From the NCBI RefSeq assembly GCF_016786325.1, contig NZ_JADWYU010000124.1:1809-40592 (forward strand): DNA of 38,784 bases, given 5' to 3'. Source of the stretch: Frankia nepalensis. Lineage in GTDB: Bacteria > Actinomycetota > Actinomycetes > Frankiales > Frankiaceae. This document shows positions 14,229 through 30,842 of the stretch, in pieces; within the stretch, counting starts at the first letter, position 1; each line of letters starts with the position of its first letter. The notes below the pieces were generated by a model. It was not told where the DNA came from, made no database searches, and saw only the letters and a program-made list of their open reading frames with translations. Both the position numbers and the translations under genes were made by a program.

Positions 14229-17200
14229 CTACAGCGGCTGGGGGTCGATGTCGCAGTCGGCCCGGATGCCGGCGGTGACATTCCTGGTCACCGGGTGGTC
14301 AGCGCCAAGAACGTAGCGCAGCCTGTGTGTCGTCCGCCCCAGCAGCCGGACGCTCTCGTCCAGACGACCAAGCTCGCGCAGGTCGATCGCCACGTTGGCG
14401 CCCACCAGCAATGTCGATGGGTGGTTGTCGCCGAGCACACGTCGCGACCGTTCGTAAGTAGCGGCGCCCAACTCGTGAGCGAGGACGAGGCGCCCCAGGG
14501 CCTGACGATCGCTGGCAAGGTTGGCGGCGGCCGCCAACACCCAGGGATGGTCGTCGCCGAGCCGCGATCGCAGGCCGGCGAGCGCGGCCATATTCAGATC
14601 GAGGGCACGCTCCGGCGTACCCATCCGGCGACGGAGGACCGCGAACTGGACGGAGGCCGCCAGCGTGTAAGGGTGGTCGTCGCCGAGGACGTCGACATAG
14701 CGGCTCACCCCCTCCTCGCAGATGGCCCTCGCCTCGTCCAGTCGCCCGGCGTCGCGCAGATCAATGGCGTGGGCGACCGAGGCCGCGATCGCGTGTGGGT
14801 GGCTCGCGCCGTAGCGACGGTCCGCCTCAGCCCAGACCCGGGCGCTGACCGCCAGTGCCTCGTCGTATCGACCGGTCTTGCGCAGGGCCGCGGCGCGCAG
14901 CCCCTGAGCCTCGAGCACCTGGAAATGGTCGTGCCGTCCCTCCACGGTCCGTTCGAGGAGGCCGACGAGTTCCTCGCAGCGCGTCACCGCCCCCGGATAG
15001 TCGCCCAACTCGCGCTGGTCTATCGCGAGACTGCCGAGCGTACGCAGTGCCTCCAGGCTCCGCTCACCGAACAGCGCGGACTTGCGGCGCCAGGTCGCCT
15101 GGTCGAGCGCGCGAGCCTGCGCGAACCGGCCGACAAGCCGCAGGCCGACCGCCACGTCGTGCGCGGCGATCAAGGTATCGACGTGTTCAGAGCCGTGCCC
15201 GAACTCGGCCCGGCTCAGGCGCTCCCGCGCGAGCTCCAAGGCATTTCCGAAGTCTCCGGCGACCATGTGGTCGGTGAAGCAGTTTCCTATGGCGCGCAGG
15301 GTCTCTGGGTGGTCCGGCCCGTTTACCCGATTGGAAAGATCGAGCACTCCGGCATTGATACCAGCCGCCTCGGAGTAGCGCCCAACGGCGAAATAAAGCC
15401 TCCCGAGCCAGCCGGCGACCCGGAGTGTTTCGGGAGCCGCGCCCCCCAGGGACCTCGTCCACGTTCCATGGGCGTGCTCCGCCAGCTCAAGCCCGCTCCG
15501 ATGGTCACCAAACCGGTACAGATAGAAGATCTCATTGACTACGAGGTCGCGGACTTGGGGGTCATCGCTGTCCACGGCGTCGCTCGCCAGCAGGTGTGGG
15601 TAGAGATCGGCATAGGTCCGCCACGTCAGTGGGTCGTCTGGGTCGCCCGGGTCGTTGACGGCCAGCAGCTGGTGCGCGGCACGGCGCATCATGGCGCGCT
15701 CGTCGTCGGTCATCCGTGTCTGAATCACGGCCTGCACCAGGCGGTGCATCTGGTACGAGTCGGTCTCGTACACGACCCGGGCCAGCGCATAACGGTTGAT
15801 CTGGCGCACCGCGTCGGCAAGTTCGGCCGGGTCACGCAGCGCGGTGTCGAGGTCCGGCACCGCCGTGACCGCCCGAGCGCCACGGAGGATCTTCCTGGAG
15901 ATCTGTTTTGGCGCGTAGAACGACCAGACCTGCAACAGTCGCAGCGCTGCCGGGTGGGCGCTCGCGAGCCGGTCGAGCGATACGTTCCAGGCCGCCTGCA
16001 CAGGCGAGCCGTCGACTGGCGGGGATGTGTCGAGCAGCTCGGCGAGCTTGTCCTCCAACAGCCGCAGATAGTCTCCAGCGGCCATCCCGGTCTCCACGAT
16101 CCAGGCCGCTGCCTGGTCCACCGCCAACGGCAGGTCACCGAGCGCGTTGGCCAGCTGGTCCGCGTCCTCGGCGGTCAATTCGGAAGAGCGTCGGCGCAGC
16201 AGTTCAACGCTCTCCTCCCGCATGAACACGTTGACCTCGATCGGGCGAACCAAAGACGACCATTTCGGGTTGCGCGAGGTTACCAGGATGTGGCCCGGGT
16301 CATTCCGCGGGAGGTATTGCGCTATAGTCTGCGGCTCGTCCGCGTTGTCGAACACCAGCAGCCAGTTCGCGTACGGCTGCCCGGGCCGCAGCGCGTCGAG
16401 CACCGCCGGCACGGCCACGTCGGCCTCCGCGCTGACCGGCAGGTTCAATCGCCCGGCGAGCTCCACCAGCGACGCCGCGACCTGCGCCCCGCGCTCAGCG
16501 GGAATCCACCACACCAGGTCAAATTCCCGCCCATAGCGGTGTACATACTCGATCGCCAGCTGCGACTTCCCTACGCCGCCCATTCCTTGCAGTACCACGG
16601 GAAGATCCACAGAACCTTCCTCCAGGGCCGCGCGCAGGTTCGCCAGAATTTCGGCTCTGCCCGTGAAATGAGGGTTCCTTACAGGGATGTTTCCCCTTAT
16701 AGCCGGCGGCCGAGCGCTCTGCCGGTGGGCGAGTCCTTGCCAGAGGGCGTCCTGTAGGCGGCGGGCGCGTGGGAGATAGCGGCCGGACAGGGCACCGAAC
16801 GCGGTCGCCTCGACCGCGACGAAGTCCTCGGACTCGGGTGTGACGGCCGGGATCGGCGCGGCGTCGGGGTCCGCCAGGGCTCCGCCCAGATGGCGGACGG
16901 CGTCCACCCTCGGGCCCAGATCCGCGCTTACCGCCTGGAGAACTCGGATGGTCTCCCAGCGGCGGGTGTAGGCCAGCAGGTGCCCCCGGAGCCCCGGAGC
17001 GAAGTCATAGGCGATGGCCGTTTCGTCCGCGAGGTCACCGGCGGCCGGGTACAGCAGGCCGTGCGCGAAGAGCTCGGCCAGGGCCCCCAGGGCATGCCCG
17101 CGCGGGCCTTCGACCATTCCTAGCAGCAGCCGCAGGGTCGAACGGGTGATGGGCGCGGCCGCGAGGCGGGTCGCCAGCTCGAAGGCGGCCGGGCTCGCGG

Positions 17201-18386
17201 CCGAGCGGAACTGGTCCACCTGGCGGCGGGCGGACGCCTGCGCCACGCCGTCCGGCTGGCTGCCCCTCGCCGGCTCGTCCCAGGGCCGTGGGGACGGCCA
17301 GACGACCATGGCCGGCAGGTCACCCCGGTCGGGATCGTCGGCGGTCAGCCGGCCGGCCCAGCGGGCGACAGCCGCCGGGTGTGGGTCGAGCATCGGCACG
17401 GCGATGGCCCCATCGGCGCCGTCGACTGGCGACGGGCCAAGACCCTGGTACTCGTCGAGGCCGGTGTGCCGAAGCGTGGACCGGGGCACCGCGCCGAGCA
17501 CCGCGACCGGCAGCCGGCGCGCCCAGGACCACAGCACCGGGCCGGCGAGGCCCCGGCGCCACGCGGTACCCATGCCATCGGTGAGCACCCAGATGATCCG
17601 CCGGCCCGACGGTTCGAGCAGCCGCGCCGGGGCGAACCCGGTCGCCGAGGCCCTGCTTCCGCGCAGTCTGAGAGCCGTCGCGTCGTCGGCGTCGGTGTTG
17701 AGGAAGTAGACCCGGACGTCGTGGAAGACGCCCAGCCGCTCAAGCAGCGCGACCAGGCGGGGCACCAGGCCCTGCCAGATGGCCATCGTCCAGTTGTCGT
17801 CGACGACCAGCGTCAGCGACCAGCGCCGTTCCAGCACCGGCCGGTACACCGGCCGCCAGCGCCCGTCGGCGAGGTGCTGGGCGGTGGCCTCCTCGTCCAG
17901 GCCGACCTCCCAGGCCGAGGGCACGGACTGGCGCAGCCCCTCGAGCGCGCGGCGCAGCTCCCGCCACTGGTTGACCAGGGCCGCGAGCGTCGGCGGCGCC
18001 GGCGCGGCCCACGACCCGTGCCGGCGCCGCGCGTGGCCACGGGCATCGGCGTCTCGTCCCCGTGCCGACGCGGCCGGTCCGCCCTCCGCGTCGTCGCCAG
18101 ACCCGGCGAAAGTCGGCTGGCTGGCGCCGGCGGTTGCCATGCCACGGCGCGACGACTCCCGGTCACGCCCACCGCCGTCCGCGCGCCCGTCGCCGCGCTC
18201 CGGTGTCTCGGCCGTCCGGGCGTCGACCGCGCCCGCGCGCGCCCGGTCTTGGTCGTCGGCCGAGGGTTCCCGGTGCGCGGGGCGAGGCAGCTCGTCGGCG
18301 AGCGCCGCGAGCCAGAGCGCCTCCGCGAGGACCAGCGGATCGGTGGGCTCCCCCGGGCCGGCGCCCGGGGGGTTCGGCGTGGTCAT
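14229..18386 (-). CDS. FxsT-like protein: vWA-like (SAV_2336-type) region, NB-ARC ATPase and TPRs (copy 1)
   Basis: A 1385-residue protein whose ATG overlaps the upstream MoxR stop (ATGA). After a low-complexity N-terminus, residues about 150-340 form a vWA-like region: LTLVVDDNWTM, where DxNxT stands in for the MIDAS DxSxS, then VRVYFLNTDADD and IIWVLTDGMG. A STAND/NB-ARC ATPase follows: RNPHFTGR, P-loop GMGGVGKS near 598, LLVFDNAD, ILVTSRN and GDLPLAVDQAA. TPRs fill about 900-1370 (LGDDHPYTLAAS, LGDNHPSTLL). The last residues, DCDIDPQPL, match my memory of the C-terminus of TPR proteins in FxSxx-COOH loci. It is probably an ATP-driven sensor or scaffold working with the MoxR and VMAP-like proteins. 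The ligand is unknown. It belongs to a head-to-tail duplicated operon. Confidence 0.85.
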   Translation of the reverse strand: MTTPNPPGAGPGEPTDPLVLAEALWLAALADELPRPAHREPSADDQDRARAGAVDARTAETPERGDGRADGGGRDRESSRRGMATAGASQPTFAGSGDDAEGGPAASARGRDADARGHARRRHGSWAAPAPPTLAALVNQWRELRRALEGLRQSVPSAWEVGLDEEATAQHLADGRWRPVYRPVLERRWSLTLVVDDNWTMAIWQGLVPRLVALLERLGVFHDVRVYFLNTDADDATALRLRGSRASATGFAPARLLEPSGRRIIWVLTDGMGTAWRRGLAGPVLWSWARRLPVAVLGAVPRSTLRHTGLDEYQGLGPSPVDGADGAIAVPMLDPHPAAVARWAGRLTADDPDRGDLPAMVVWPSPRPWDEPARGSQPDGVAQASARRQVDQFRSAASPAAFELATRLAAAPITRSTLRLLLGMVEGPRGHALGALAELFAHGLLYPAAGDLADETAIAYDFAPGLRGHLLAYTRRWETIRVLQAVSADLGPRVDAVRHLGGALADPDAAPIPAVTPESEDFVAVEATAFGALSGRYLPRARRLQDALWQGLAHRQSARPPAIRGNIPVRNPHFTGRAEILANLRAALEEGSVDLPVVLQGMGGVGKSQLAIEYVHRYGREFDLVWWIPAERGAQVAASLVELAGRLNLPVSAEADVAVPAVLDALRPGQPYANWLLVFDNADEPQTIAQYLPRNDPGHILVTSRNPKWSSLVRPIEVNVFMREESVELLRRRSSELTAEDADQLANALGDLPLAVDQAAAWIVETGMAAGDYLRLLEDKLAELLDTSPPVDGSPVQAAWNVSLDRLASAHPAALRLLQVWSFYAPKQISRKILRGARAVTAVPDLDTALRDPAELADAVRQINRYALARVVYETDSYQMHRLVQAVIQTRMTDDERAMMRRAAHQLLAVNDPGDPDDPLTWRTYADLYPHLLASDAVDSDDPQVRDLVVNEIFYLYRFGDHRSGLELAEHAHGTWTRSLGGAAPETLRVAGWLGRLYFAVGRYSEAAGINAGVLDLSNRVNGPDHPETLRAIGNCFTDHMVAGDFGNALELARERLSRAEFGHGSEHVDTLIAAHDVAVGLRLVGRFAQARALDQATWRRKSALFGERSLEALRTLGSLAIDQRELGDYPGAVTRCEELVGLLERTVEGRHDHFQVLEAQGLRAAALRKTGRYDEALAVSARVWAEADRRYGASHPHAIAASVAHAIDLRDAGRLDEARAICEEGVSRYVDVLGDDHPYTLAASVQFAVLRRRMGTPERALDLNMAALAGLRSRLGDDHPWVLAAAANLASDRQALGRLVLAHELGAATYERSRRVLGDNHPSTLLVGANVAIDLRELGRLDESVRLLGRTTHRLRYVLGADHPVTRNVTAGIRADCDIDPQPL

Positions 18387-19459
18387 CCGGGGTTCGACGT
18401 CGGGTCCAGCCTGCGCCACACCGCGGCCAGCAGTTCGGCCCGTTCCTGGCCGTCGCCGTCGAAAGCGCCCGAGGTCACCAGGTGGGCGGCGTTGAGCAGC
18501 TGGTCGGCGGCGAGCATCCCGTGCCGGCGGCGGGCCACGAACTCCTCGACGATCCGCCGCTGGTCATCCACCGCGCCTCGCGGAAAGTGCGCCAGGACCA
18601 GGTCGGCGAGCGCGTCGGCGTCGGGGTCGGGGACGTCGAGCCGGATGCAGCGGCGCAGGAAGGCCGCCGGGAACTCGCGTTCGCCGTTGCTGGTGATGAC
18701 GATGATCGGGAACTCGTGCACGCGCACGATGCCACCGCGAACGGTCGCCGTGGCGCCCCGGTCCGCCGTGTACACCGACATGTCGGGCTCGAGGTTGCGC
18801 ACCCGGACGAGCTCGGGCAGGTCGAACTCGCCGTCCTCGAAGATGGTCAGCAGGTCGTTGGGCAGGTCGTAGTCGCTCTTGTCCAGCTCGTCCACCAGCA
18901 GGACCCGCGGGTGCCGGTAGGGAAGCAGCGCGGTGCCCAGCGGGCCCAGGTGCACGAAGTCGCCGATCGGCGGCACGGGGCGCTGCGCCCGGCCCGGCCC
19001 GGCCGTCGCCCCGCCGCCGCCCGACTCGACGACGGCCTGGGCTCGCCCGATCGCGTCGTACTCGTAGAGGCCTGACCGCACGGTCGTGCGGCTGGTGACC
19101 GGCCACCGCAGCACCCGGCCGAGGCCGAGCTCGCGGGCGATCAGATACGCGAGCGTGGACTTCCCCGAGCCGGGCCCGCCGGTGACCAGCAGCGGCCGCC
19201 GCAGGCAGATCGCCGCGTTGATGACGCTGAGCTGGGAGTAGCTGAGCTGCCCGGTGGCGACGGACCCGAGCCGCCGGCTCGCCTCGCGTTCGTCGTCAGG
19301 CGGCGGTGGCAGGTCCGGCCCGCCGTCGAAGTCCCGCCAGGGCGGGGGTGCCGGCCAGCGCCGGTCCCGCTCGGCGGGCGGCAGCGGCCGCCCGGTCCCG
19401 TGGAAGATCCACCAGGCCGGCCGGCCCGGCCCGGGATCGGGCGTCGGTCGCGTCGTCAT
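18383..19459 (-). CDS. MoxR-family AAA+ ATPase (copy 1)
   Basis: The 358-residue ATPase has Walker A GGPGSGKS at 94-101, Walker B VLLVDELDK at 186-194, sensor-1 ITSNGE at 255-260 and a presumed arginine-finger segment FLRRCIRLD. MoxR ATPases typically remodel partner proteins together with a vWA protein. Here the natural partner is the vWA-like region of the FxsT-like protein encoded next, whose start overlaps this stop. The start at 19459 overlaps the stop of the VMAP-like gene (ATGA). The N-terminal WWIFHGTGRP phrase is shared with copy 2. Confidence 0.9.
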   Translation of the reverse strand: MTTRPTPDPGPGRPAWWIFHGTGRPLPPAERDRRWPAPPPWRDFDGGPDLPPPPDDEREASRRLGSVATGQLSYSQLSVINAAICLRRPLLVTGGPGSGKSTLAYLIARELGLGRVLRWPVTSRTTVRSGLYEYDAIGRAQAVVESGGGGATAGPGRAQRPVPPIGDFVHLGPLGTALLPYRHPRVLLVDELDKSDYDLPNDLLTIFEDGEFDLPELVRVRNLEPDMSVYTADRGATATVRGGIVRVHEFPIIVITSNGEREFPAAFLRRCIRLDVPDPDADALADLVLAHFPRGAVDDQRRIVEEFVARRRHGMLAADQLLNAAHLVTSGAFDGDGQERAELLAAVWRRLDPTSNPG

Positions 19460-20964: not shown

Positions 20965-21464
20965 GCCGACGCGTCGTTGACCGCCGGCCGAGTCCCGGCC
21001 GAGGATCGGCTGCGCAGCGCGTGCCCGTCCGTCCCGAGCGCCCCGCTCACCGTGTCGTCCACGAGCTCACCTGCCCCGGCCCCGTTCCGGTGCGCCGCCG
21101 CGAGTATCCGGACGGCCACAGCAACTCTAATGGCTTGAGATGCCGGTAAGGGCGGCGAATGGCGTGACCGCGCCCTGGCGTGGCGCGGATCAGCCCACCT
21201 GGCAGGCGCATCGCCCCGCTGGCGACCGGGCCATACGGTCAGCCGCGAGAAAGGTGGGCGGTGTGCATCTGAGCGACGCCGGGGCCTGGCATTGCGCGGT
21301 CGATTCGTCTGCTTGGCGAGCAGCGATGTGCGACACTGATGGCCGCATGTCGCCTTGAGCAGGGGCCCCGATCCGGAAGACGGACGTCGCCACGGAACGG
21401 GTTCGCCGAACGGGGTGTTCGGGACGACGCGGGGCAGGTCTCAGTCCCGGGAAAGGAGCCACGC
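20965..21464. other. 500-bp divergent regulatory region
   Basis: This separates the VMAP-like operon (minus strand) from the peptide-HExxH operon (plus strand), so promoters for both must lie here. I see a less GC-rich patch near 21120-21140 (caactctaatggcttgaga) that could carry a -10 element, but no convincing -35/-10 pair. A short frame at 21263-21358 is listed separately. Confidence 0.45.
21263..21358 (+). CDS. Possible 31-aa peptide upstream of the FxsA-like gene
   Basis: GTG at 21263 is preceded by AAAGGTGG about five bases upstream and opens a 31-codon frame (starting MHLSDAGAWHC, ending DTDGRMSP) that stops 106 bases before the FxsA-like ATG. It contains two Cys and three Trp/His-rich spots. 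It could be a leader peptide, a second small substrate or chance. It has no family resemblance that I know. Confidence 0.25.
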   Translation: MHLSDAGAWHCAVDSSAWRAAMCDTDGRMSP

Positions 21465-21638
21465 ATGCCCGTTCCTGACGAGTCCGTCAGGTCGGACCTC
21501 CCCGATGTCGCACACCTTTCGTTGACCGAGCTGCGCGAACTTCACGACGAGGCGCTGAACGCCGGCCTGGAGCGGGTTATTCGGCGAGTACGGACCGCCG
21601 ATGAACGACTGTCGGGCGGCAGCCGGCGGTTCGACTGA
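21465..21638 (+). CDS. FxsA-like RiPP precursor peptide, 57 aa, non-canonical C-terminus
   Basis: The ATG at 21465 has an ideal GAAAGGAG site at 21451-21458. The leader-like part contains DLPDVAHLSLTEL (residues 11-23), the acidic Leu-rich signature I associate with FxSxx-COOH peptides, followed by an amphipathic helix (HDEALNAGLERVIRRV) as in that family. Those peptides end in Phe-x-Ser-x-x, where a radical SAM enzyme makes a Phe-Ser cyclophane. This one ends LSGGSRRFD, with Phe second from the end and a free C-terminal Asp. The next gene, an HExxH hydroxylase-like enzyme, starts two bases after this stop, so the pair is almost certainly co-translated as substrate and enzyme. It could instead be a regulatory small protein. 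Confidence 0.72.
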   Translation: MPVPDESVRSDLPDVAHLSLTELRELHDEALNAGLERVIRRVRTADERLSGGSRRFD

Positions 21639-21640
21639 CG

Positions 21641-23551
21641 GTGGCCGAGCCGTCGTCGGTCCCACCCCTGCGCGGGGGGCCGGTTGTCGGACGGCTTCGG
21701 GTGCCGTGGTCGGTCGTCGACCAGATCGCCGCCGGTAGGCCCGACCAGACCTCCGGTGCCGCGCTGCTAGCAGCCGAACGCAACCACCGGGCCGTCATCC
21801 TGCGCGCGGTGCTGGACGAGGCACGCGCCGCTGGGGCAGCCGCCACCGGCCCGTTGATCGCCATGGACGAGGCCTGGGATCTGCTGGCGACGGCCGAGCG
21901 CGCTGACCCCGACCAGGTCGCCTTCCTGCTCGGCCGCCCGCAGGTCGGTGCCTGGGCGGCACGCGCGCTGCGACGGCTGCGGCTCGGAAGCACCTACGAG
22001 GCGCCGCTGTGGGCCGATCTCGGTCACCTGCATGCGATCGCGGCCGCAGCCGCTGTGCGGACAGGTATCCAGGCGCGGCTAGCCGTTCCCGCGTGGTTCG
22101 GGCAGGTCGTGCTCCCGACCCTCGGTTACGCCCGCGGTCCCTACCGCGATGCCTGGGAGCCAGCCCTGGTCGAGGCCAAGCAAGGTGCCTTCCGGGTCGG
22201 CACGCGCAGGTGGCAAGCCTTCCCATCCTCGTCCGGAGATACCCCGGCCGACACGCTGGACGTGCCTACCTGGCGGGCGGCCACCTGGCTGCGAGTCGGT
22301 CCGCCGGGGGCCCGGCTGACCGTCGACCTGGACGATGCCAGCCCCTACCGGATCCTGCTCGGAACGGCTCGGCCGGCGAGGGTGTGCCCGGCGACGGTTG
22401 GTCGCTGGGAGTCGCTGCTCGACGAGGCGTGGAAACTGCTCCGGGCGGCCGACCCCGCACGCTCCCAGGCCCTGGCCGCGGCGACCATGACGATTGTCCC
22501 ACTGCCCCCCGAGAGCCATTCCCACATGTTCAGCGCCTCCTCAGGCGACGCGTTTGGCGCACTGGTCGCGACCGAACCGGACGACGCGGAGACACTCGCC
22601 GTGACGCTGGTACACGAGTTCAATCACGCCCAGCTCGGCGTCCTGATGCATCTGGTCGATCTCGTCGACGCCGACGCGTCCGCGCTCGACGCTCACGTCT
22701 TCTACGCGCCCTGGCGGGATGACCCGCGGCCGCTGGTCGGGCTTGCCCAAGGCGTTTTTGCCTTCTTCGGGGTGGCCAGCTTCTGGCGCGGACAGGTGCG
22801 GCTGGCGGCGGGCACACGGGCGGCCAGGGCGTACTTCGAGTTCGCGCTGTGGCGGCGGCGGGTGCACACGGCGCTGCGCCGGCTGCGCGCCGATGGGCGG
22901 CTCACGCCGTTCGGCACCCGGTTCTTCGACGGGGTGGCGGTGACCGTCGCGGGCTGGCTGCGCGAGCCTGTGCCACCCGACCTCGACGCACTGGCCCGGG
23001 CCGCGGCGCTCGATCACTACGGCAGATGGCGGATCCACCACTTGCCGCCGTCCCCTGAGCTCGTCGACGCGTTGGCGCTCGCCTGGCAGAATGGCCTGGC
23101 CTTCAAGCCGTCCGCGGCCAGGGCGGTGGCGCGTGGGTGGTGGCACCAGCCAGACGTTCCGGTTGCCGACCCAGCCGCGAGAGACCTCGACGGCGTTGTC
23201 ACCGCCACCCGGATCTGGCTCACCGACAGGGAACGGCTGCGATCAATGCTGGCTGACGCGGACGGCGCCCACTCAGGCGTGGCGGGCGTGGGAAGCGCCG
23301 ATCTCGCTCTCCTCGCCGGCCAGCGCGAGCGCGCCCGCGCCGGCTACCTGGCGGAGCTGGCCGAGCCACACCCGCGGGCTGGCGCGTGGACCGGCCTCGG
23401 ACGGCTGATGGCTGCCGCCGGCGAGGCCGCGGCGGCACGTGCCCTGCTCGAACGCCCCGAGCTGGTACGCGCGGTGACCGAGGCCATGGCAGGCGGGAAA
23501 CGTCCCCCGCCGACGCGACTTGCGGCCTGGCTCGGCCAGATGCTGCCCTGA
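21641..23551 (+). CDS. HExxH-motif protein, putative alpha-ketoglutarate-dependent peptide beta-hydroxylase
   Basis: A 636-residue protein with a GTG start immediately after the peptide gene. The central motif VTLVHEFNHAQLG (His325-Glu-Phe-Asn-His329) and the later FYAPWRDDPRPL (about 354-365) with FWR are hallmarks of the HExxH-motif family linked to FxSxx-COOH loci. Fused radical-SAM relatives have been shown to beta-hydroxylate core-peptide residues using alpha-ketoglutarate rather than acting as proteases. This copy is stand-alone: no CxxxCxxC radical SAM motif is present in it or elsewhere in the window. The C-terminal third is helical and Ala-rich. The likely substrate is the 57-aa peptide encoded just upstream, with its C-terminal Asp or Phe as candidate targets (inference). 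It converges on FxsT copy 2 with 34 bases between the stops. Confidence 0.85.
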   Translation: MAEPSSVPPLRGGPVVGRLRVPWSVVDQIAAGRPDQTSGAALLAAERNHRAVILRAVLDEARAAGAAATGPLIAMDEAWDLLATAERADPDQVAFLLGRPQVGAWAARALRRLRLGSTYEAPLWADLGHLHAIAAAAAVRTGIQARLAVPAWFGQVVLPTLGYARGPYRDAWEPALVEAKQGAFRVGTRRWQAFPSSSGDTPADTLDVPTWRAATWLRVGPPGARLTVDLDDASPYRILLGTARPARVCPATVGRWESLLDEAWKLLRAADPARSQALAAATMTIVPLPPESHSHMFSASSGDAFGALVATEPDDAETLAVTLVHEFNHAQLGVLMHLVDLVDADASALDAHVFYAPWRDDPRPLVGLAQGVFAFFGVASFWRGQVRLAAGTRAARAYFEFALWRRRVHTALRRLRADGRLTPFGTRFFDGVAVTVAGWLREPVPPDLDALARAAALDHYGRWRIHHLPPSPELVDALALAWQNGLAFKPSAARAVARGWWHQPDVPVADPAARDLDGVVTATRIWLTDRERLRSMLADADGAHSGVAGVGSADLALLAGQRERARAGYLAELAEPHPRAGAWTGLGRLMAAAGEAAAARALLERPELVRAVTEAMAGGKRPPPTRLAAWLGQMLP

Positions 23552-23585: not shown

Positions 23586-26500
23586 CTAGACCGGCACCGG
23601 GTCGACGTCACAGTCGCCGCGGCTGCCACTCGCCGCCGCGGCGGTCCCCGGGTGGTCGGCGCCGAGGACCCGGCTGAGACCGTCAACCATCCGGGCCAGC
23701 AGATCCTCGCTCTCCTGGTCCCGGCCCAGCGCTCGTAGATCCAGCGCGAGGTTCACTCCCACGACCAGCGTCGAGGGGTGGTCCGCGCCGAGCACCCGCG
23801 CCGACCGGTCGAAGGTGTCGAGGTCAAGCTCGTGTGCCTGGGCGAAATCCCCCAGCGCGTACTGGTCGCTGGCCAGGTTGGTCGCCGCCACCAGGCTCCA
23901 CGGATGATCCCGGCCGAGTCCTGCGTCAAGCGCTTCCAGGGTCGCGACGTCCAACTCGTGGGCACGCTCGGGCCGACCCGCCTGTCGGTGGATGACCGCG
24001 AGGTTGACCGCGGCAGAGCGGGTGTATGGGTGGGTCTCGCCGAACAGGCGCTCGTAGCGGCGCAGCGCGGCCTCGCACAGCTCGTGCGCCTCGGCCAGTT
24101 CGCCCGCGTGGCGCAGGTCGACGGACAGCGCCAGCGACGCGGCGATCGTGCGCGGGTGGTCCTTGCCGTAGCGGCGCATCAGCCGGGCCTCGACGTCCCG
24201 GGACAGCTCCAGCGCCTCCATGTGCCGGCCCGCCTTGCGCAGCGCCACCGCGAGCAGCGTCCGCGCCAGCAGCACCTGGAAGTGATCCAGGCGGCCCTCG
24301 ACAACCTGGCTGAACAGTCCGACCAGTTCCTCGTGGCGAACCAGCGCGCCGAGGTAGTCCCCCAGCTCACGGACATCAACCGCGAGGCTGGTCAACGTGC
24401 GCAACGTGTCGATGTGATACTCGCCGAGCACGCGGACCCGCTGGTTCCAGGTCTGCTCGTTGAGCACCCTCGCCTCGCGCAATTGGCCGACCATCCGCAG
24501 GTAGACGCCGACGTCGTGCGCCGCCGCAAGCGTCTGGTCAACCTCCGGGCCGTAGGCCCGCTCGGCCCGGCGCAACCGCTCCTGCGAGATCTCCAGCGCC
24601 CCCTGGAAATCACCGGCCACGATCCGGTCAACGCCGACGTTGCCCATCGTCAGCAGCGTCTCGCGATGCTCGTTGCCATGAACCTGGGTACACAGCTCCA
24701 GCACCCGGGCATTGGCCCGCGCCGCGTCCTCATAACGGCCGACGACGATGTACAACCAGCCAAGCCAACCAGCCAGCCGCAACGTGTCCGGCGATTCCTC
24801 CCCGATCGTCCGCGACCAGGTGCGATGCACTTGCTCGGCAAGCTCGACACTCGCCTGGTGGTCGCCCCACTTGTACAGGTACACGACCTCGTTGACCAGC
24901 AGGTCGTGGGTCCACGGGTCCGTGCTCTCCGCCGCGTCACTCGCCAGCAGGTGCGGATAAAGGTCGCCATAGGCCCGCCACGTCGACGGGTCGTCCGGAT
25001 CACCCGGGTCGTTCACGGCCAGCAGCAGATGCGCCGCGCGACGCATCATGGCCCGCTCGTCGGCGGTCATCCGGGACTGGAGCACAGCCTGCACCAGGCG
25101 GTGCATCTGGTACGAGTTCGTCTGGTAGACGATCCGAGCCAGGGCGTAGCGGGTGATCTGGCCCACCGCGTCGGAGAGCTTGATCGGGTCGCGAAGGGCG
25201 GAGTCGAGATCCGGCACCGTCGTGATCGCCCGGCCGCCGCGGAAGATCTGCCGGGAGATCTGCTCCGGCGCGTAGAACGACCAGACCTGCAGCAGCCGCA
25301 GCGCCGCCGGATGTGTGGTCGCCAGCCGGTCGAGCGAGACGTTCCAGGCCGCCTGCACGGGCAGTTCGTAGTCGACCGGCGGCGAGGTGCTGAGCAGCTC
25401 GGCGCGCTTGTCCTCGAACAGCCGCAGATAGTCCCCGGCCGCCATCCCGGTCTCCACCAGCCAGGTCGCCGCCTGCTCCACCGCCAGCGGCAGGTCACCG
25501 AGCGCGTGGGCGAGTCGGTCCGCGTCCTCGACGGACAGCTCGGGAAGACGCCGGCGCAGCAGGTCGACGCTCTCCCCCCGCATGAACACGTCGACCTCGA
25601 GCGGCCGCGCCACCGCCGACCAGTTCGGGTTGCGCGAGGTCACCAGGATGCGGCCCGAGTCGCTCTGCGGAAAATACTGCCGCACGGCCCGCGGCTCGTC
25701 CGCGTTGTCGAACACCAACAGCCACTTCCCATACGGCTGCCCCAGCCGCAACGCGTCCAGCACCGCCGGCACGGCCGTGTTGGCCTCCGTGCTCACCGGC
25801 AGGTTCAGCCGTCCCGCCAGTTCCACCATCGACGCCGCGACCTGCGCCGCGTGCTCCGCGGGCATCCACCACACCAGGTCGAATTCTCGCCCATAGCGGT
25901 GCACATATTCGATGGCCAGGTGCGACTTCCCGACCCCACCCATTCCGTGCAGCGCCTCGGGGAGCACCGCGGTCGTGCCCTCCGCCAGCCTGGCCCGCAG
26001 GTTCGCCAGCAGTTCGACCCTGCCGGTGAAATGCGGGTTTCTTGGGGGGACATTCCCCCAGATGGCCGGCGGGCGGGCGCTGCGCCGCTCCTCTTGGGCG
26101 CGCGCGTGCGTGGTCGAGGTCAAGGGCTCTCCTCTGGCACCGGCAGGCTGGGCCACTACCACACGGGCCTCATCAGCACTGCCAGGACGGGGACGCGGCG
26201 TCGCTGGCGCGTCGTCACTCGGGCTCACCCCGGCTACCTTAGACGGCTCCTCGGCGTTGACCGACCAGTCCCGCCGAAGTTCCTCGCGCAATCGGCGTGA
26301 ACGCGGCAGATAGGGGCCAGACAATGCCCCGAAGGCGGCTGCCTCGGCCGCGACGAAGTACCGGGAGTCGGCAGTGACCTCGGGCAGCGGTGCCTCGTCG
26401 GGGCTCTCCAGGGCCGCGCCGAGGTGACGCACCGCGTCCACCCGGTCGCCCAGCTCGTCCCGGACCACCCGTATCACCCGCATCGTCTCCGCGCGGCGCA

Positions 26501-28073
26501 GGAACGCAAGCAGGTCCTCCCGCAGCCCGTCGTCGAAGTCGTAGGCGACGGCCCAGTCGTCGTCACGGCCCGCGACCGGGTGCAGCAGGCCGTGCGCGAA
26601 CAGCTCGGCCAGCGTCGCGAGCCCCGACCGACGCGGCCGGGCGGCCAGCCGCAACAGCCGACGCAGCACGGAGCGGGTGATCGGCGCGGCAGCCAGCCGG
26701 GTCGCCAGGTCGAACGCGGCCGGGCTCGCCACGGCGCGGAACCGGTCGACCCGGCGGCGCGCCTCGTCAGGCCCGCTGTCGAGCTCATACGGGTCGCCAG
26801 GATCACCGCCGTCCTCCCAACCAGTGCCGCCCGCCGTCCGCCCGGCCCCCGGCGGCGCGACGACCAGCACAGGCAGGTCGGCGTCACGCGGGTTGACGTC
26901 GCCCGGGGCGGCGGCACGTGGGTCGGCGGTGCCCGGGTCGGCCACCCGGTCGGCGAATCGGCGGATCGACGCCGGGTCGGCCTCCAACAGGGGCACGGGC
27001 AGACCGGCCATTCTGGGCGGCTCCAGCACCTCCTCGAGGCGCCACTCCTCGAGCCAGGTGTGGCGCAACGTAGAACGGGGCACCGCGGACAGCACCGCGG
27101 TCGGCAGCCGGCTCGCCCAGGTCCACAGCACCGCGTCGACCAGGCCACGCCGCCAGGCGGCGCCCAGCCCGTCGGTGAGCAGCCACACCACCCGCCGCCG
27201 CGACGGCTCGAGCAGCCGGGCCGGCGCGAAGCCGGCACCGCCCTCGTCGGCGCCGCGCAGCCGCACCCCAGCGGCCTCGTCAACGTCCGTGTCGAGGTGG
27301 TATACCCGGACGTCGCGGAAGACCGCCAGCCTCTCGAGCATCGCGACCTGACGACGCACCTCGTCCCGCCAGATCGCCATCGTCCAGTTGTCGTCGACGA
27401 CGAGCGCGAGCTCGAACCGGCGTTCCAGTCGCGGGCGGTAGACCGGCCGAGGCTCCCCGTCGGCGAGGCACCGGGCCGTGGCCTCCTCGTCCACCTCGAC
27501 CTCGTGGGCCGACGGCACGGTCTGATGCAGCGCGCCGAGCGCCCGGCGCAGCTCCCGCCACCGGTCCGTGAGATCCCCGAGTGCCGGGTAGACCGCGGGC
27601 GACCAGGTGATGGCCTGGCCGAGCCGGCGGCCGACACCGACGGCCGCGTCCGCCGCCGGTCCGATCAGCCCGGCCGCCCACTCGTCGTCGAGAAAACCAA
27701 CCAGCTCGTCGGTGGGCGGCGCGTCCGGCCACCGGCCGGACGGCTCGGGCTGGTCGCCGGGGATCACCAGGCCGTCACCGGCGTCGACCCGCGTTGGTCC
27801 AGGGCCGCCAGGAACGTCGTCGCCCGTGGTCGCCGAGGGCTCCGCGCCCGGTCGCCCGCCCGCCGAGGTCGTTGGCGGGTCTGCCGCGCTCGGCCCGTCG
27901 GTGGCCTCCGGTTCCTCGGGCGCGATCGGTTCGTCGCCGACGGCATCTGGGCGACGGTCAGCTGGTGAGCCCAGGGGTGACGACCGCGCGGGCGGCGGGT
28001 CCACGAACGACGCGAGCCAGACGATGTCGGCCACCTCGCGTGGGTCTGTCGGATGCGCGGGGCGGTCGTTCAT
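23586..28073 (-). CDS. FxsT-like protein: vWA-like region, NB-ARC ATPase and TPRs (copy 2)
   Basis: A 1495-residue paralogue of the protein at 14229-18386, with the same domain order. The vWA-like segment LALVVDDNWTMAIW lies near residue 225, with VVWLLTDGLG following. NB-ARC starts at RNPHFTGR with P-loop GMGGVGKS near 708, then LLVFDNADEP, ILVTSRNPNW and GDLPLAVEQAA. TPRs run to about 1480 (LGADHPSTLVVG), and the end is GDCDVDPVPV. The ATPase core is close to copy 1 (shared LAIEYVHRYGREFDLVWW), while the N-terminal linkers and TPRs differ more, as expected if the two copies sense different ligands. The ATG at 28073 overlaps the MoxR stop (ATGA). A longer linker before NB-ARC explains the extra 110 residues. 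Confidence 0.85.
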   Translation of the reverse strand: MNDRPAHPTDPREVADIVWLASFVDPPPARSSPLGSPADRRPDAVGDEPIAPEEPEATDGPSAADPPTTSAGGRPGAEPSATTGDDVPGGPGPTRVDAGDGLVIPGDQPEPSGRWPDAPPTDELVGFLDDEWAAGLIGPAADAAVGVGRRLGQAITWSPAVYPALGDLTDRWRELRRALGALHQTVPSAHEVEVDEEATARCLADGEPRPVYRPRLERRFELALVVDDNWTMAIWRDEVRRQVAMLERLAVFRDVRVYHLDTDVDEAAGVRLRGADEGGAGFAPARLLEPSRRRVVWLLTDGLGAAWRRGLVDAVLWTWASRLPTAVLSAVPRSTLRHTWLEEWRLEEVLEPPRMAGLPVPLLEADPASIRRFADRVADPGTADPRAAAPGDVNPRDADLPVLVVAPPGAGRTAGGTGWEDGGDPGDPYELDSGPDEARRRVDRFRAVASPAAFDLATRLAAAPITRSVLRRLLRLAARPRRSGLATLAELFAHGLLHPVAGRDDDWAVAYDFDDGLREDLLAFLRRAETMRVIRVVRDELGDRVDAVRHLGAALESPDEAPLPEVTADSRYFVAAEAAAFGALSGPYLPRSRRLREELRRDWSVNAEEPSKVAGVSPSDDAPATPRPRPGSADEARVVVAQPAGARGEPLTSTTHARAQEERRSARPPAIWGNVPPRNPHFTGRVELLANLRARLAEGTTAVLPEALHGMGGVGKSHLAIEYVHRYGREFDLVWWMPAEHAAQVAASMVELAGRLNLPVSTEANTAVPAVLDALRLGQPYGKWLLVFDNADEPRAVRQYFPQSDSGRILVTSRNPNWSAVARPLEVDVFMRGESVDLLRRRLPELSVEDADRLAHALGDLPLAVEQAATWLVETGMAAGDYLRLFEDKRAELLSTSPPVDYELPVQAAWNVSLDRLATTHPAALRLLQVWSFYAPEQISRQIFRGGRAITTVPDLDSALRDPIKLSDAVGQITRYALARIVYQTNSYQMHRLVQAVLQSRMTADERAMMRRAAHLLLAVNDPGDPDDPSTWRAYGDLYPHLLASDAAESTDPWTHDLLVNEVVYLYKWGDHQASVELAEQVHRTWSRTIGEESPDTLRLAGWLGWLYIVVGRYEDAARANARVLELCTQVHGNEHRETLLTMGNVGVDRIVAGDFQGALEISQERLRRAERAYGPEVDQTLAAAHDVGVYLRMVGQLREARVLNEQTWNQRVRVLGEYHIDTLRTLTSLAVDVRELGDYLGALVRHEELVGLFSQVVEGRLDHFQVLLARTLLAVALRKAGRHMEALELSRDVEARLMRRYGKDHPRTIAASLALSVDLRHAGELAEAHELCEAALRRYERLFGETHPYTRSAAVNLAVIHRQAGRPERAHELDVATLEALDAGLGRDHPWSLVAATNLASDQYALGDFAQAHELDLDTFDRSARVLGADHPSTLVVGVNLALDLRALGRDQESEDLLARMVDGLSRVLGADHPGTAAAASGSRGDCDVDPVPV

Positions 28074-29233
28074 TCCCGCTCGGCCGCGGGGTCGAGGCGG
28101 CGCCATACCGCGGCCAGCAACGCGGCGCGGTTGCCGTCGTCCCCGTCGAGGGCGCCACGGTCGAGGAGGTGGGCCGCGTTGAGCAGCTGGTCGGCCGCCA
28201 GCACCCCCAGCTCCCGGCGGGCGACGAACTCGGTGATGATCCGCCGATAGGCGTCCGAGCCACGCGGGAAGTGCGCCGCGACAAGGTCCGCGAGCGCGTC
28301 GGCGCCCGGCTGCGGGATGTCCAGACGGACGCAGCGGCGCAGGAACGCCTCCGGGAAGTCCCGCTCACCGTTGCTCGTGATCACGACGATCGGGAACTCG
28401 TGCGCCCGCACCACCCCTCCCGTGACAGGCGCGGCCACCCCGCGGTCCGCCGTGTACACCGAGGCGATCGGCTCGGCCTCACGCACCCGGATGAGCTCGG
28501 GCAGGTCGAACTCGGCGTCCTCGAGGAGGGTGAGCAGGTCGTTGGGCAGGTCGTAGTCACATTTGTCGAACTCGTCGACCAGCAGCACCCGCGGCAGCGC
28601 GTACGGCAGCAGGGCCGTCCCGAGCGGACCCAGCGTCACGAACCGGCCGACCGGTACCACGGCCGGTGGAACGGGGGCGTCGGGACGGGGCCGGCGTCGC
28701 AACGCCGGGCCGGCGTCACGGGACGCGTTGTCCCGCGAACCGGGCGGCCCCTCCCTGCCGGGCTGGCCGACCGGGACGGAATCCCGGCTGGACTGGGCGA
28801 TCGACTGCGCCCGGCCGATCGCGTCATACTCGTACAGCCCCGAACGCACGGTCGTCCGGCTCGTCACCGGCCACCGCAGAACCGGCCCAAGTCCCAGTTC
28901 CCAGGCAATCAAATATGCCAAACTGGACTTCCCGGATCCCGGACCGCCGGTGATGAGCAACGGCCGCCGCAGATGTATCGCCGCGTTGATGACGGACAAC
29001 TGCTCGGCCGTGAGCGTCCCCACGGCGACGGTGCCAAGCCGGCGTTTCGTCTCCGCCTCGTCGGCGGGCGGGATCTCAAGGTCGGGTGCGCCCGTGAAGG
29101 CGCGCCAGGGAGGCGCCGGCGGCCAGCGCCGCACGCGCTCGGCGAGCGTCGTGGCGGCGGGTCGGCCGGTTCCGTGAAACAGCCACCAGGATGGGCTTTC
29201 CTGGTCGGGAACGGGTGTTCCTCGCTCGGTCAA
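28070..29233 (-). CDS. MoxR-family AAA+ ATPase (copy 2)
   Basis: A 387-residue paralogue of the ATPase at 18383-19459, with Walker A GGPGSGKS at 96-103, Walker B VLLVDEFDK at 216-224, sensor-1 ITSNGE and FLRRCVRLD. Compared with copy 1 it carries a longer Pro/Arg/Asp-rich insert (about residues 148-190) between the YEYDAIGRAQ segment and the next conserved strand. A TTG at 29233 gives the start equivalent to copy 1. Unlike copy 1 it does not overlap the VMAP-like gene, as 34 bases separate them. It should act on the FxsT-like partner encoded downstream. Confidence 0.88.
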   Translation of the reverse strand: MTERGTPVPDQESPSWWLFHGTGRPAATTLAERVRRWPPAPPWRAFTGAPDLEIPPADEAETKRRLGTVAVGTLTAEQLSVINAAIHLRRPLLITGGPGSGKSSLAYLIAWELGLGPVLRWPVTSRTTVRSGLYEYDAIGRAQSIAQSSRDSVPVGQPGREGPPGSRDNASRDAGPALRRRPRPDAPVPPAVVPVGRFVTLGPLGTALLPYALPRVLLVDEFDKCDYDLPNDLLTLLEDAEFDLPELIRVREAEPIASVYTADRGVAAPVTGGVVRAHEFPIVVITSNGERDFPEAFLRRCVRLDIPQPGADALADLVAAHFPRGSDAYRRIITEFVARRELGVLAADQLLNAAHLLDRGALDGDDGNRAALLAAVWRRLDPAAERE

Positions 29234-29267
29234 CTACCTGCCCGCCTCCGCTTCACAGGAACGAGAA

Positions 29268-30842
29268 TCATCGTCCTCGTTCCGGCTGCCGTTCGGGATC
29301 ATCCCATATCAAAGCAAGATGCCGACCGAGATCTGGCCCCTCGGTGGCATTGCGGTACGAGTCCGTTCTGAGGCGCCAGACGCGGTCACGCAGGTCGGCG
29401 AGTCGCGGCGCGCCGACGGGGCGGTCGGCCTCCTGGCCGCCGTGGAGAAAGGCGTCCACCGCCGCGGCGACGTCCCGCGTCCGCCCGCCCCGGTACCACA
29501 GGACGACCGGCACGCCGAGGCGTAGCGCGACCTCCAGTTCACGCCCCGCCCACGCCGCGCGTCCGTCGGGTGGCCCAGACAGGACCAGCGCCACCGTGTC
29601 CGTGTCGGCGACGATCTCCGCGTGCAGGGACTGGAGAAGACTCCAGCTGTCCTTGTCGGCGTGCTCGTCCTCTCCCCACTTGACACTGTGGGAGTCGCCC
29701 TCGGTCAGTTGCTCCCACAGGTTCCACCACCGTCGGTGCCAGCGAGACCGCCGGTGCCGCTCGAGGCTGCGCAGCACGACCGGGTACTCCACCCCCAGGG
29801 TGCTGGGCAGCTCCGGGTTGTCGTCCGCCTGCCAGTGCTCGACCCGCAGATGCAGCAGCTCCCGCGACAGGATGAACTCGATCGCCACGTCGGCCTTCCG
29901 GGCGCGCGGTTCCTCCTCGAGTTCAGCCACCACCTGTCGGGTGAACGCCTCCAGGGCATCCACCGGCCGGACGACCCTGCCCACGCGCTCGAAGCCGGCG
30001 GTTTCCGGCCACTGCCGCCACCAGGTCACCTCGGCCTGACGGCCCGGGTCTGTACCGGGCTGTCCGGCCGGTCCTTGCTCGGTCCGAGGCAGCAGGTCGA
30101 ACTGGAGGAGCAGGTGGACGGGACCTGCCGGCCGCTTGCGCGGGTCTCGGTGGAGCCGCTCCCTGTCCAGCGGGCCGGCGAGGCCGCGCGCACTCGCGCG
30201 CTGCCGGTTCCACTGATCCGCCTGGCGGGCGGTCTCCGGGTCGAGCCGGTCCATCACGGCCTCCAGGAAGGCCATGTCCGGAGGTAATCCGAGCGGACCC
30301 GCGCCCTGGCCCATCAGCCAGAGCAGCACCGCCCACGCCGAGTCACAGTGCGGCGGCGGGGAAACGGCGTGCCCCCCGAGCGCCCGCCGGAAGGCTGGGC
30401 CGACCTCGGTTGGCGTGACGGCCCGCAGCTCCGACTCCAGCCGGCGCAGCAGTTCCTCCGAGGCGTCCTCGACCAAGGCGTACGCCTCCCACCGGTTGAC
30501 CAGGCGGCGCAGCATCGCGACGGTGGGGTCGGGGACGCCCAGGTCCGAGACGGCGTCCGGCAGCCAGGCCAGCCCGACCAGCGGCCCGCGGCAGGTCTCC
30601 AGGAGACCGAGAAACCACTGCTGGTCCGTCGGGTAGGCCGGCAGGTCGAGCGCGACGCCCGCCCACCGCGACAGCCGGTCGAGTAACAGGGTCCTGCTCG
30701 CCTCGCCCCGCAGCGGCGGGCTGCCACGCAGCAGCCGGGCGATCTCGCGTTCCACCTCCGCACGGCGCCGCCCCGTGATCAACACGCCGTCCCGCGCGAC
30801 CGCCTGAACCTGTCGGATCCGCCCACGCCAGCGGGCAAGCAC
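29268..30842 (-). CDS. VMAP-like protein (vWA-MoxR associated, copy 2)
   Basis: A 524-residue paralogue of the protein at 19456-20964. Shared landmarks in order are LRGEASRTLLLDRLSR, DQQWFLGLLE, PPHCDSAWAVLLWL, VHLLLQFDLL, TWWRQWPE, AIEFILSRELLHLRVEHW, YPVVLRSLER and GRHLALIWDDPERQPE. The region before TWWRQWPE has an extra Gly/Pro stretch. No effector domain can be seen. The GTG at 30842 is the longest start, and the homologous part begins around residue 30. It is the first gene of the second three-gene set. The 218 bases upstream include a less GC-rich patch (catcatcaacatag) that may hold its promoter. Confidence 0.75.
   Translation of the reverse strand: MLARWRGRIRQVQAVARDGVLITGRRRAEVEREIARLLRGSPPLRGEASRTLLLDRLSRWAGVALDLPAYPTDQQWFLGLLETCRGPLVGLAWLPDAVSDLGVPDPTVAMLRRLVNRWEAYALVEDASEELLRRLESELRAVTPTEVGPAFRRALGGHAVSPPPHCDSAWAVLLWLMGQGAGPLGLPPDMAFLEAVMDRLDPETARQADQWNRQRASARGLAGPLDRERLHRDPRKRPAGPVHLLLQFDLLPRTEQGPAGQPGTDPGRQAEVTWWRQWPETAGFERVGRVVRPVDALEAFTRQVVAELEEEPRARKADVAIEFILSRELLHLRVEHWQADDNPELPSTLGVEYPVVLRSLERHRRSRWHRRWWNLWEQLTEGDSHSVKWGEDEHADKDSWSLLQSLHAEIVADTDTVALVLSGPPDGRAAWAGRELEVALRLGVPVVLWYRGGRTRDVAAAVDAFLHGGQEADRPVGAPRLADLRDRVWRLRTDSYRNATEGPDLGRHLALIWDDPERQPERGR

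What the first reader, a model, noticed from the sequence alone, without database searches (positions are those of the whole stretch)
21465..21638. FxsA-like precursor lacking the FxSxx C-terminus
Seen: the DLPDVAHLSLTEL leader and helix are kept, but the peptide ends GGSRRFD with Phe at the penultimate position and a C-terminal Asp. Known: the cyclophane in FxSxx peptides needs Phe at position -5 and Ser at -3. This peptide cannot carry that crosslink. It may define a separate core class modified only by the HExxH enzyme.
Basis: partly seen in the sequence, partly recalled or inferred. Interest (0 to 1): 0.8.

Follow-up and report, generated by a model that had tools for sequence, protein, structure and literature searches.

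The report
RxD-tailed FxsA-like peptide with hydroxylase
This is a real small gene for a peptide that shares its front half with the FxSxx family but ends in a different tag (Arg-x-Asp), is paired with a single iron oxygenase instead of the usual radical enzyme, and sits in a bacterial immune-like gene cluster; the class was noticed in 2020, and I found no test of its chemistry.

Summary
Window 21465-21638 encodes a 57-residue peptide with an FxsA-like leader, ending GGSRRFD. It has a Shine-Dalgarno site, dN/dS of 0.22 and 0.25 against two homologues, and an intact HExxH enzyme 2 nt downstream. It is not a frameshifted FxSxx peptide. The proposed separate core class is real but already named: Kaur et al. 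2020 (eLife) described an 'RxD motif type' of peptide-processing system tied to VMAP/MoxR/vWA systems. The features they give in the text that I could test are met: RxD end, neighbouring HExxH gene, no FxsB match in the window, vWA protein fused to an AP-ATPase with TPRs. Of 55 non-redundant peptides paired with HExxH but without FxsB, 17 end in RxD (19 with RxDY), against 0 of 17 with FxsB. After collapsing near-copies it is 9 of 34, against about 0.5 expected. The enzyme has the alpha-ketoglutarate HExxH oxygenase fold (SjiH Z 30, ChlBHExxH Z 21) plus a TPR-like tail, so oxidation is likelier than the proteolysis assumed in 2020. My most novel reading: R-x-D docks the C-terminus so that the residue just before it (here Arg54) is oxidised, as in two unrelated HExxH pathways. 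That is untested.

The parts
21451..21458 (+). Shine-Dalgarno-like GAAAGGAG upstream of the peptide start
21465..21638 (+). RxD-type FxsA-like precursor peptide (57 aa, ends SRRFD)
21501..21599 (+). leader stretch that matches TIGR04268 columns 1-33 (residues 13-45)
21627..21635 (+). C-terminal R-F-D, the R-x-D-COOH motif (residues 55-57)
21641..23551 (+). aKG-HExxH-type enzyme (636 aa; TIGR04267 domain at residues 260-431, HEFNH at 325-329, TPR-like C-terminal region about 520-619)
23586..28106 (-). SAV_2336 (vWA) N-terminal region fused to AP-ATPase (NB-ARC)-TPR, convergent with the peptide-enzyme pair
28070..29233 (-). MoxR-like AAA ATPase of the same ternary system
29268..30842 (-). VMAP protein of the same ternary system
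   Evidence: tblastn with the VMAP-C region of the other copy, 47% identity
19456..20964 (-). VMAP protein of the paralogous ternary system (EAD2, VMAP-M0, VMAP-C)
18383..19459 (-). MoxR-like AAA ATPase of the paralogous ternary system
14229..18419 (-). SAV_2336 (vWA)-AP-ATPase-TPR protein of the paralogous ternary system

Best explanation
The peptide is an RxD-type precursor of the VMAP-associated peptide-processing systems, not a broken FxSxx peptide. Its leader, shared with FxsA, recruits the HExxH enzyme encoded 2 nt downstream. That enzyme, an iron and alpha-ketoglutarate oxygenase, oxidises the C-terminal tail, most likely by beta-hydroxylating a residue in or just before R-F-D, without a radical SAM step. 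The modified peptide then acts as a signal or effector for the neighbouring vWA-MoxR-VMAP/AP-ATPase system. Shown here: the gene, the pairing, the recurrent tail motif, no FxsB match in the window, and the predicted enzyme fold. Inferred: substrate recognition, the reaction, its site and the biological role (a toxin or signal role is the proposal of Kaur et al.).
For: Real gene: (dN/dS 0.22 and 0.25 against two homologues) and the Shine-Dalgarno site. Enzyme: TIGR04267 at 161.6 bits, cut-off 40; H325, E326 and H329 invariant in the 10-row and 25-row alignments of standalone enzymes; AlphaFold2 model pLDDT 87.4 superposes on SjiH-Ni (22ob, Z 30.0, 2.7 A, 406 residues) and ChlBHExxH (8s5f, Z 21.1, 3.4 A, 315 residues). 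Motif: 17 of 55 FxsB-less HExxH-paired peptides end RxD, 0 of 17 FxsB-paired ones do; 9 of 34 after collapsing near-copies, against 0.47 in shuffles of the last 12 residues, none of 20,000 reaching 9. Context: of 19 RxD(Y) peptides, 16 lie in loci with vWA fused to AP-ATPase, 0 with them separate, 3 unresolved; of 17 FxsB-paired ones 0 fused, 12 separate, 5 unresolved. The same architecture rule and an RxD class are stated in Kaur et al. 2020, section 24 (PMC7159879).
Against: No modification is shown by any sequence evidence. RxD(Y) is absent from 36 of the 55 FxsB-less peptides with the same kind of leader and enzyme, and on the enzyme tree the label needs 9 changes, at least 7 forced. The genome encodes an FxsB and an FxsB-like radical SAM protein elsewhere, which could act in trans. 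PflC, placed by its authors in the same HExxH family, can also hydrolyse peptides when the leader is absent (PMC12636437), so a protease role is not excluded.
Confidence: 0.7

Rival explanations
1. The HExxH protein is a zincin-type metallopeptidase that cleaves the precursor and releases the short RxD tail as a peptide signal or toxin (the 2020 proposal).
For: Kaur et al. 2020 call it a zincin-like metallopeptidase. PflC hydrolyses leaderless peptides at the site of its oxidative cleavage (PMC12636437). A small-residue (G/S/A) pair lies in the stretch -12 to -4 of 7 of 9 collapsed RxD peptides.
Against: Sequence and predicted fold place it with SjiH and ChlBHExxH, the latter deposited as an alpha-ketoglutarate oxygenase, far above the peptidases in the 50 rows shown (Z 6 or less). 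The family members described in the passages I read oxidise leader-bearing substrates.
Confidence: 0.12
2. The enzyme cleaves the backbone oxidatively near the GGS stretch, giving a C-terminal amide and an oxo-capped tail, as PosC and PflC do at ARMD.
For: PosC cleaves at Ala, and partly at Gly put in its place, just before RMD (PMC12636437). The window tail is GG-S-RRFD and two homologues have TA-S-RRLD and SA-S-RRLD. One of 19 RxD(Y) relatives has Gly directly before RxD.
Against: The residue directly before RxD here is Arg. In PosC, Gln, Ser or Val there were oxidised without cleavage.
Confidence: 0.13
3. The peptide is a decaying FxsA paralogue that lost its core after loss of FxsB and has no product.
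For: Many tails are variable. One relative (L077) keeps the peptide beside a broken HExxH gene.
Against: Purifying selection on the peptide, an intact enzyme gene, and recurrent RxD tails across several genera.
Confidence: 0.05

Closest known systems
RxD motif type peptide-processing system of VMAP-ternary systems (Kaur et al. 2020, eLife, PMC7159879)
   Same: RxD C-terminus, neighbouring HExxH gene, no radical SAM partner found in the window, vWA fused to AP-ATPase with TPRs, MoxR and VMAP beside it
   Different: They read the enzyme as a metallopeptidase; family and fold evidence here point to an oxygenase. Their source alignments were not seen, so that their 'RxD' is the C-terminal R-x-D counted here is my reading of the text.
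FxSxx-COOH (FxsA) with FxsB and HExxH domain
   Same: Leader region and HExxH partner family
   Different: No F-x-S-x-x end and no FxsB match in the window; vWA and AP-ATPase fused rather than separate
PosA/PosC and PflA/PflC (Pseudomonas, PMC12636437)
   Same: Standalone alpha-ketoglutarate HExxH enzyme and a conserved precursor C-terminus R-M-D
   Different: Nitrile-hydratase-type leader, MNIO-nitroreductase partner, poly-Gln core that is hydroxylated too, Ala before RMD
Nitrilobacillin precursor PesA2 with PesO (PMC13060819)
   Same: HExxH enzyme hydroxylates the residue (Pro) before an R(V/T)DN end
   Different: An extra terminal Asn whose carboxylate becomes a nitrile; MNIO and asparagine-synthetase-like partners. 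Its leader was not compared here.

Membership tests
FxSxx-COOH (TIGR04268) | C-terminal F-x-S-x-x | tested here: not met
   ends SRRFD; no [FYW]xSxx-stop in any frame of 21300-21900
FxSxx-COOH (TIGR04268) | family score above curated cut-off (28 bits) | tested here: not met
   20.7 bits, columns 1-33 of 44
FxSxx-COOH (TIGR04268) | radical SAM partner FxsB in the locus | tested here: not met
   no FxsB match in the window; an FxsB and an FxsB-like gene lie on other contigs
RxD-type VMAP peptide-processing system | peptide with RxD motif in its C-terminal part | tested here: met
   RFD at the C-terminus; the source's own alignment was not seen
RxD-type VMAP peptide-processing system | HExxH (zincin-like) gene with the peptide | tested here: met
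RxD-type VMAP peptide-processing system | vWA protein fused to AP-ATPase with TPRs, beside MoxR and VMAP | tested here: met
RxD-type VMAP peptide-processing system | precursor is processed to a small C-terminal peptide | not testable with these tools
   needs product analysis
aKG-HExxH peptide beta-hydroxylase (TIGR04267) | family score above cut-off and intact HExxH | tested here: met
   161.6 bits against 40; HEFNH at residues 325-329
aKG-HExxH peptide beta-hydroxylase (TIGR04267) | fold of ChlBHExxH / SjiH | tested here: met
   predicted model, Z 21.1 and 30.0
aKG-HExxH peptide beta-hydroxylase (TIGR04267) | Fe(II)/alpha-ketoglutarate dependent oxidation of the partner peptide | not testable with these tools
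   needs an enzyme assay
RiPP precursor | post-translationally modified core | not testable with these tools
   no product data

The most novel reading that the evidence does not exclude
R-x-D with a mostly hydrophobic x, at or near the C-terminus, is a portable docking tag for standalone alpha-ketoglutarate HExxH enzymes, reached in different precursor families (actinobacterial FxsA-like peptides, Pseudomonas ARMD peptides, Peribacillus R(V/T)DN peptides). It places the residue immediately before it at the iron. In this window that predicts oxidation of Arg54, an unusual beta-hydroxyarginine in a peptide of an NLR-like conflict system. In relatives it predicts beta-hydroxy-Gln, -Asp, -Asn or -Glu, and scission where that residue is Gly.
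Probability: 0.2. Interest if true: 0.75.

Novelty: new member of a known kind. Interest (0 to 1): 0.5.

Why it matters
It turns an unexplained peptide class in bacterial immune-like clusters into a two-gene system that can be tested directly, with a specific predicted reaction site. If right, it links NLR-like conflict systems to a family of peptide oxygenases and explains why the same short C-terminal tag recurs in different precursors.

Tried and rejected
Frameshifted FxSxx end: no [FYW]xSxx-stop in any frame of 21300-21900. Pseudogene: purifying selection on the peptide against two homologues. An FxsB gene near the pair: no match in the window. The second FxsB-like gene of the genome (C22) lies in a neighbourhood where only a weak MoxR match and no HExxH match was found. 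Of the 18 matches, 16 went into alignment A1; L020 (canonical, before FxsB) and L021 (a stop inside, no HExxH neighbour) did not. One search read the minus-strand loci in the wrong orientation; redid them. Pfam gave nothing above cut-off for the peptide and nothing at all for the enzyme. In the 50 rows of the VIA-align listing only SjiH and ChlBHExxH stand out; peptidase folds (leukotriene A4 hydrolase, an aminopeptidase) score Z 6 or less. 'RxD motif' in PMC8195603 is a Death-domain motif, unrelated (passages).

Limits. The peptide profile was built from 16 Frankiaceae peptides, 5 of them ending RxD, so detection leans slightly to that end. Loci were 80 of 96 relatives kept plus regions chosen from hits, not a random sample. 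Of 88 peptide hits, 3 had no HExxH match downstream on their strand; all 3 lie in loci with FxsB. Two rows (L088 and one of L118) counted were dropped as doubtful; two enzyme fragments under 400 residues (L077 and one of L118) were left out of the tree. The small-residue and residue-before-RxD patterns were looked at after the fact. My claim that the link between RxD and the ARMD / R(V/T)DN ends is not in print rests only on paper searches and a word search of PMC12636437. Morishita et al. 2024 (Nat. Chem.) and Haft and Basu 2011 were seen only as cited.

Full report
What is there. GAAAGGAG at 21451-21458 precedes its ATG, and the next gene, an HExxH protein of 636 residues, starts 2 nt after its stop. 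The peptide matches TIGR04268 (FxSxx-COOH) only over columns 1-33 of 44 and below the cut-off, while the enzyme matches TIGR04267 (aKG-HExxH peptide beta-hydroxylase) at 161.6 bits. No frame on either strand of 21300-21900 has a canonical FxSxx end.

Surroundings. On the minus strand the pair is flanked by two paralogous vWA-MoxR-VMAP sets: 14229-20964 and 23586-30842. In each the vWA (SAV_2336) protein is fused to an AP-ATPase with TPRs of the FxSxx_TPR family. A third member of that family lies at 2-2392; its N-terminus looks TIR-like by eye, which was not tested with a profile. FxsB gave no match in the window. The genome has a separate canonical locus on contig C333 with an FxsA ending FQSSI, FxsB and an HExxH protein, and a further FxsB-like gene on contig C22 in another context.

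Relatives. With the peptide as query, 14 of 35 genomes of the family (the window's own included) match at E up to 0.1; with a 16-row alignment, 31 of 393 genomes of the class match at E up to 0.001. A scan of named genomes with the standalone enzyme gave 96 relatives, of which 80 were kept. Across the window and 113 loci (the regions and the 80), 88 peptide hits were found; 85 have an HExxH match downstream, and these are 72 different peptides: 55 without an FxsB match in the locus and 17 with one.

The tail motif. Of the 55, 17 end R-x-D and 2 end R-x-D-Y; of the 17 FxsB-paired peptides none do. None of the 55 has an [FYW]-x-S-x-x end, and 10 of the 17 have exactly F-x-S-x-x. With two doubtful rows dropped and tails at least 50% alike collapsed, 9 of 34 end R-x-D against 0.47 expected from shuffling the last 12 residues (none of 20,000 shuffles reached 9); Arg at -3 and Asp at -1 go together (Fisher p 0.034). 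Genera of named RxD rows are Parafrankia, Frankia, Micromonospora, Actinoplanes, Paractinoplanes, Dactylosporangium, Winogradskya and Streptomyces. Against strict need: 36 of 55 lack it, and on the enzyme tree of 70 rows the label needs 9 changes, at least 7 forced, though it is clustered more than shuffled labels (mean 16.3). The two closest homologues of the window peptide both end SRRLD.

Architecture. RxD(Y) peptides lie in loci with vWA and AP-ATPase fused in 16 of 19 cases, separate in 0, unresolved in 3. Other FxsB-less peptides: 25 fused, 6 separate, 5 unresolved of 36. FxsB-paired: 0 fused, 12 separate, 5 unresolved of 17. This is the rule stated by Kaur et al. 2020 (section 24 read whole, other passages), who list four peptide types including an RxD motif type, say that a radical SAM-SPASM gene goes with the FxSxx type, and call the HExxH protein a metallopeptidase. 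The finding is therefore a member of a class already named by sequence analysis.

The enzyme. The HExxH residues are invariant in the standalone enzymes aligned (10 rows; 25 rows). The AlphaFold2 model (25 sequences, pLDDT 87.4, pTM 0.89) matches SjiH-Ni (22ob, Z 30.0 over 406 residues) and the HExxH domain of ChlBHExxH (8s5f, Z 21.1 over 315 residues); residues about 520-619 resemble TPR repeats at modest Z, under 8. ChlBHExxH is deposited as an alpha-ketoglutarate oxygenase. This favours oxidation over proteolysis, although PflC, taken by its authors from the same family, also hydrolyses leaderless peptides (PMC12636437, parts 1-4 of 6 read). An earlier paper on Pseudomonas sp. Os17 reports a TIGR04267 match (9.3e-8) for the HExxH protein of what I take to be the pos cluster (PMC7726476, passages).

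A wider link. PosC and PflC act on precursors ending in a fully conserved ARMD: they cleave at the Ala and also hydroxylate the Gln residues before it, and PosC hydroxylates Gln or Val put in place of that Ala. In nitrilobacillins the HExxH enzyme PesO beta-hydroxylates the Pro before an R(V/T)DN end (PMC13060819, 12 of 29 passages seen). So in both characterised pathways an oxidised residue comes directly before R-x-D. In the 19 RxD(Y) peptides here the residue before R-x-D is R 6, Q 6, D 3, N, S, E and G once each, and x in the 17 RxD ones is L 7, I 3, F 2, V 2, Q 2, T 1. I propose that R-x-D docks the C-terminus and the residue before it is oxidised. Against this, single Ala changes of R, M or D in PosA did not stop the reaction and the motif need not be terminal there, so the idea is held at 0.2.

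Verdict. A real, conserved, already named kind of peptide whose chemistry I found no test of in the papers searched.

Noticed in passing
L116, L119, L120, L122 (Nocardia, Lentzea): Same kind of leader and standalone HExxH enzyme, but the peptides end PLI[TK]C with a C-terminal Cys: a further core type.
   Followed up: no
L123, L125, L128, L131 (Streptomyces): Standalone HExxH pairs whose peptides end with FAGDPK[ST]S followed by three residues: another conserved core.
   Followed up: no
L081, L083, L084, L085, L086: Short HExxH enzymes without FxsB that group with 14 FxsB-associated enzymes on the tree (100/100) and have vWA and AP-ATPase separate: possibly a second origin of FxsB-less pairs.
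   Followed up: partly
   Followed up: partly
   Followed up: partly
L173 (contig C22), 7268-8395: An FxsB-like radical SAM gene (48% identical) near a weak MoxR match and short upstream frames, without an HExxH match: possibly another peptide-modifying system.
   Followed up: partly
L115 (Streptomyces sp. TRM68416): Two peptide-HExxH pairs on opposite strands in one locus, with tails GGYNPQRDER and DGGAERFD.
   Followed up: no
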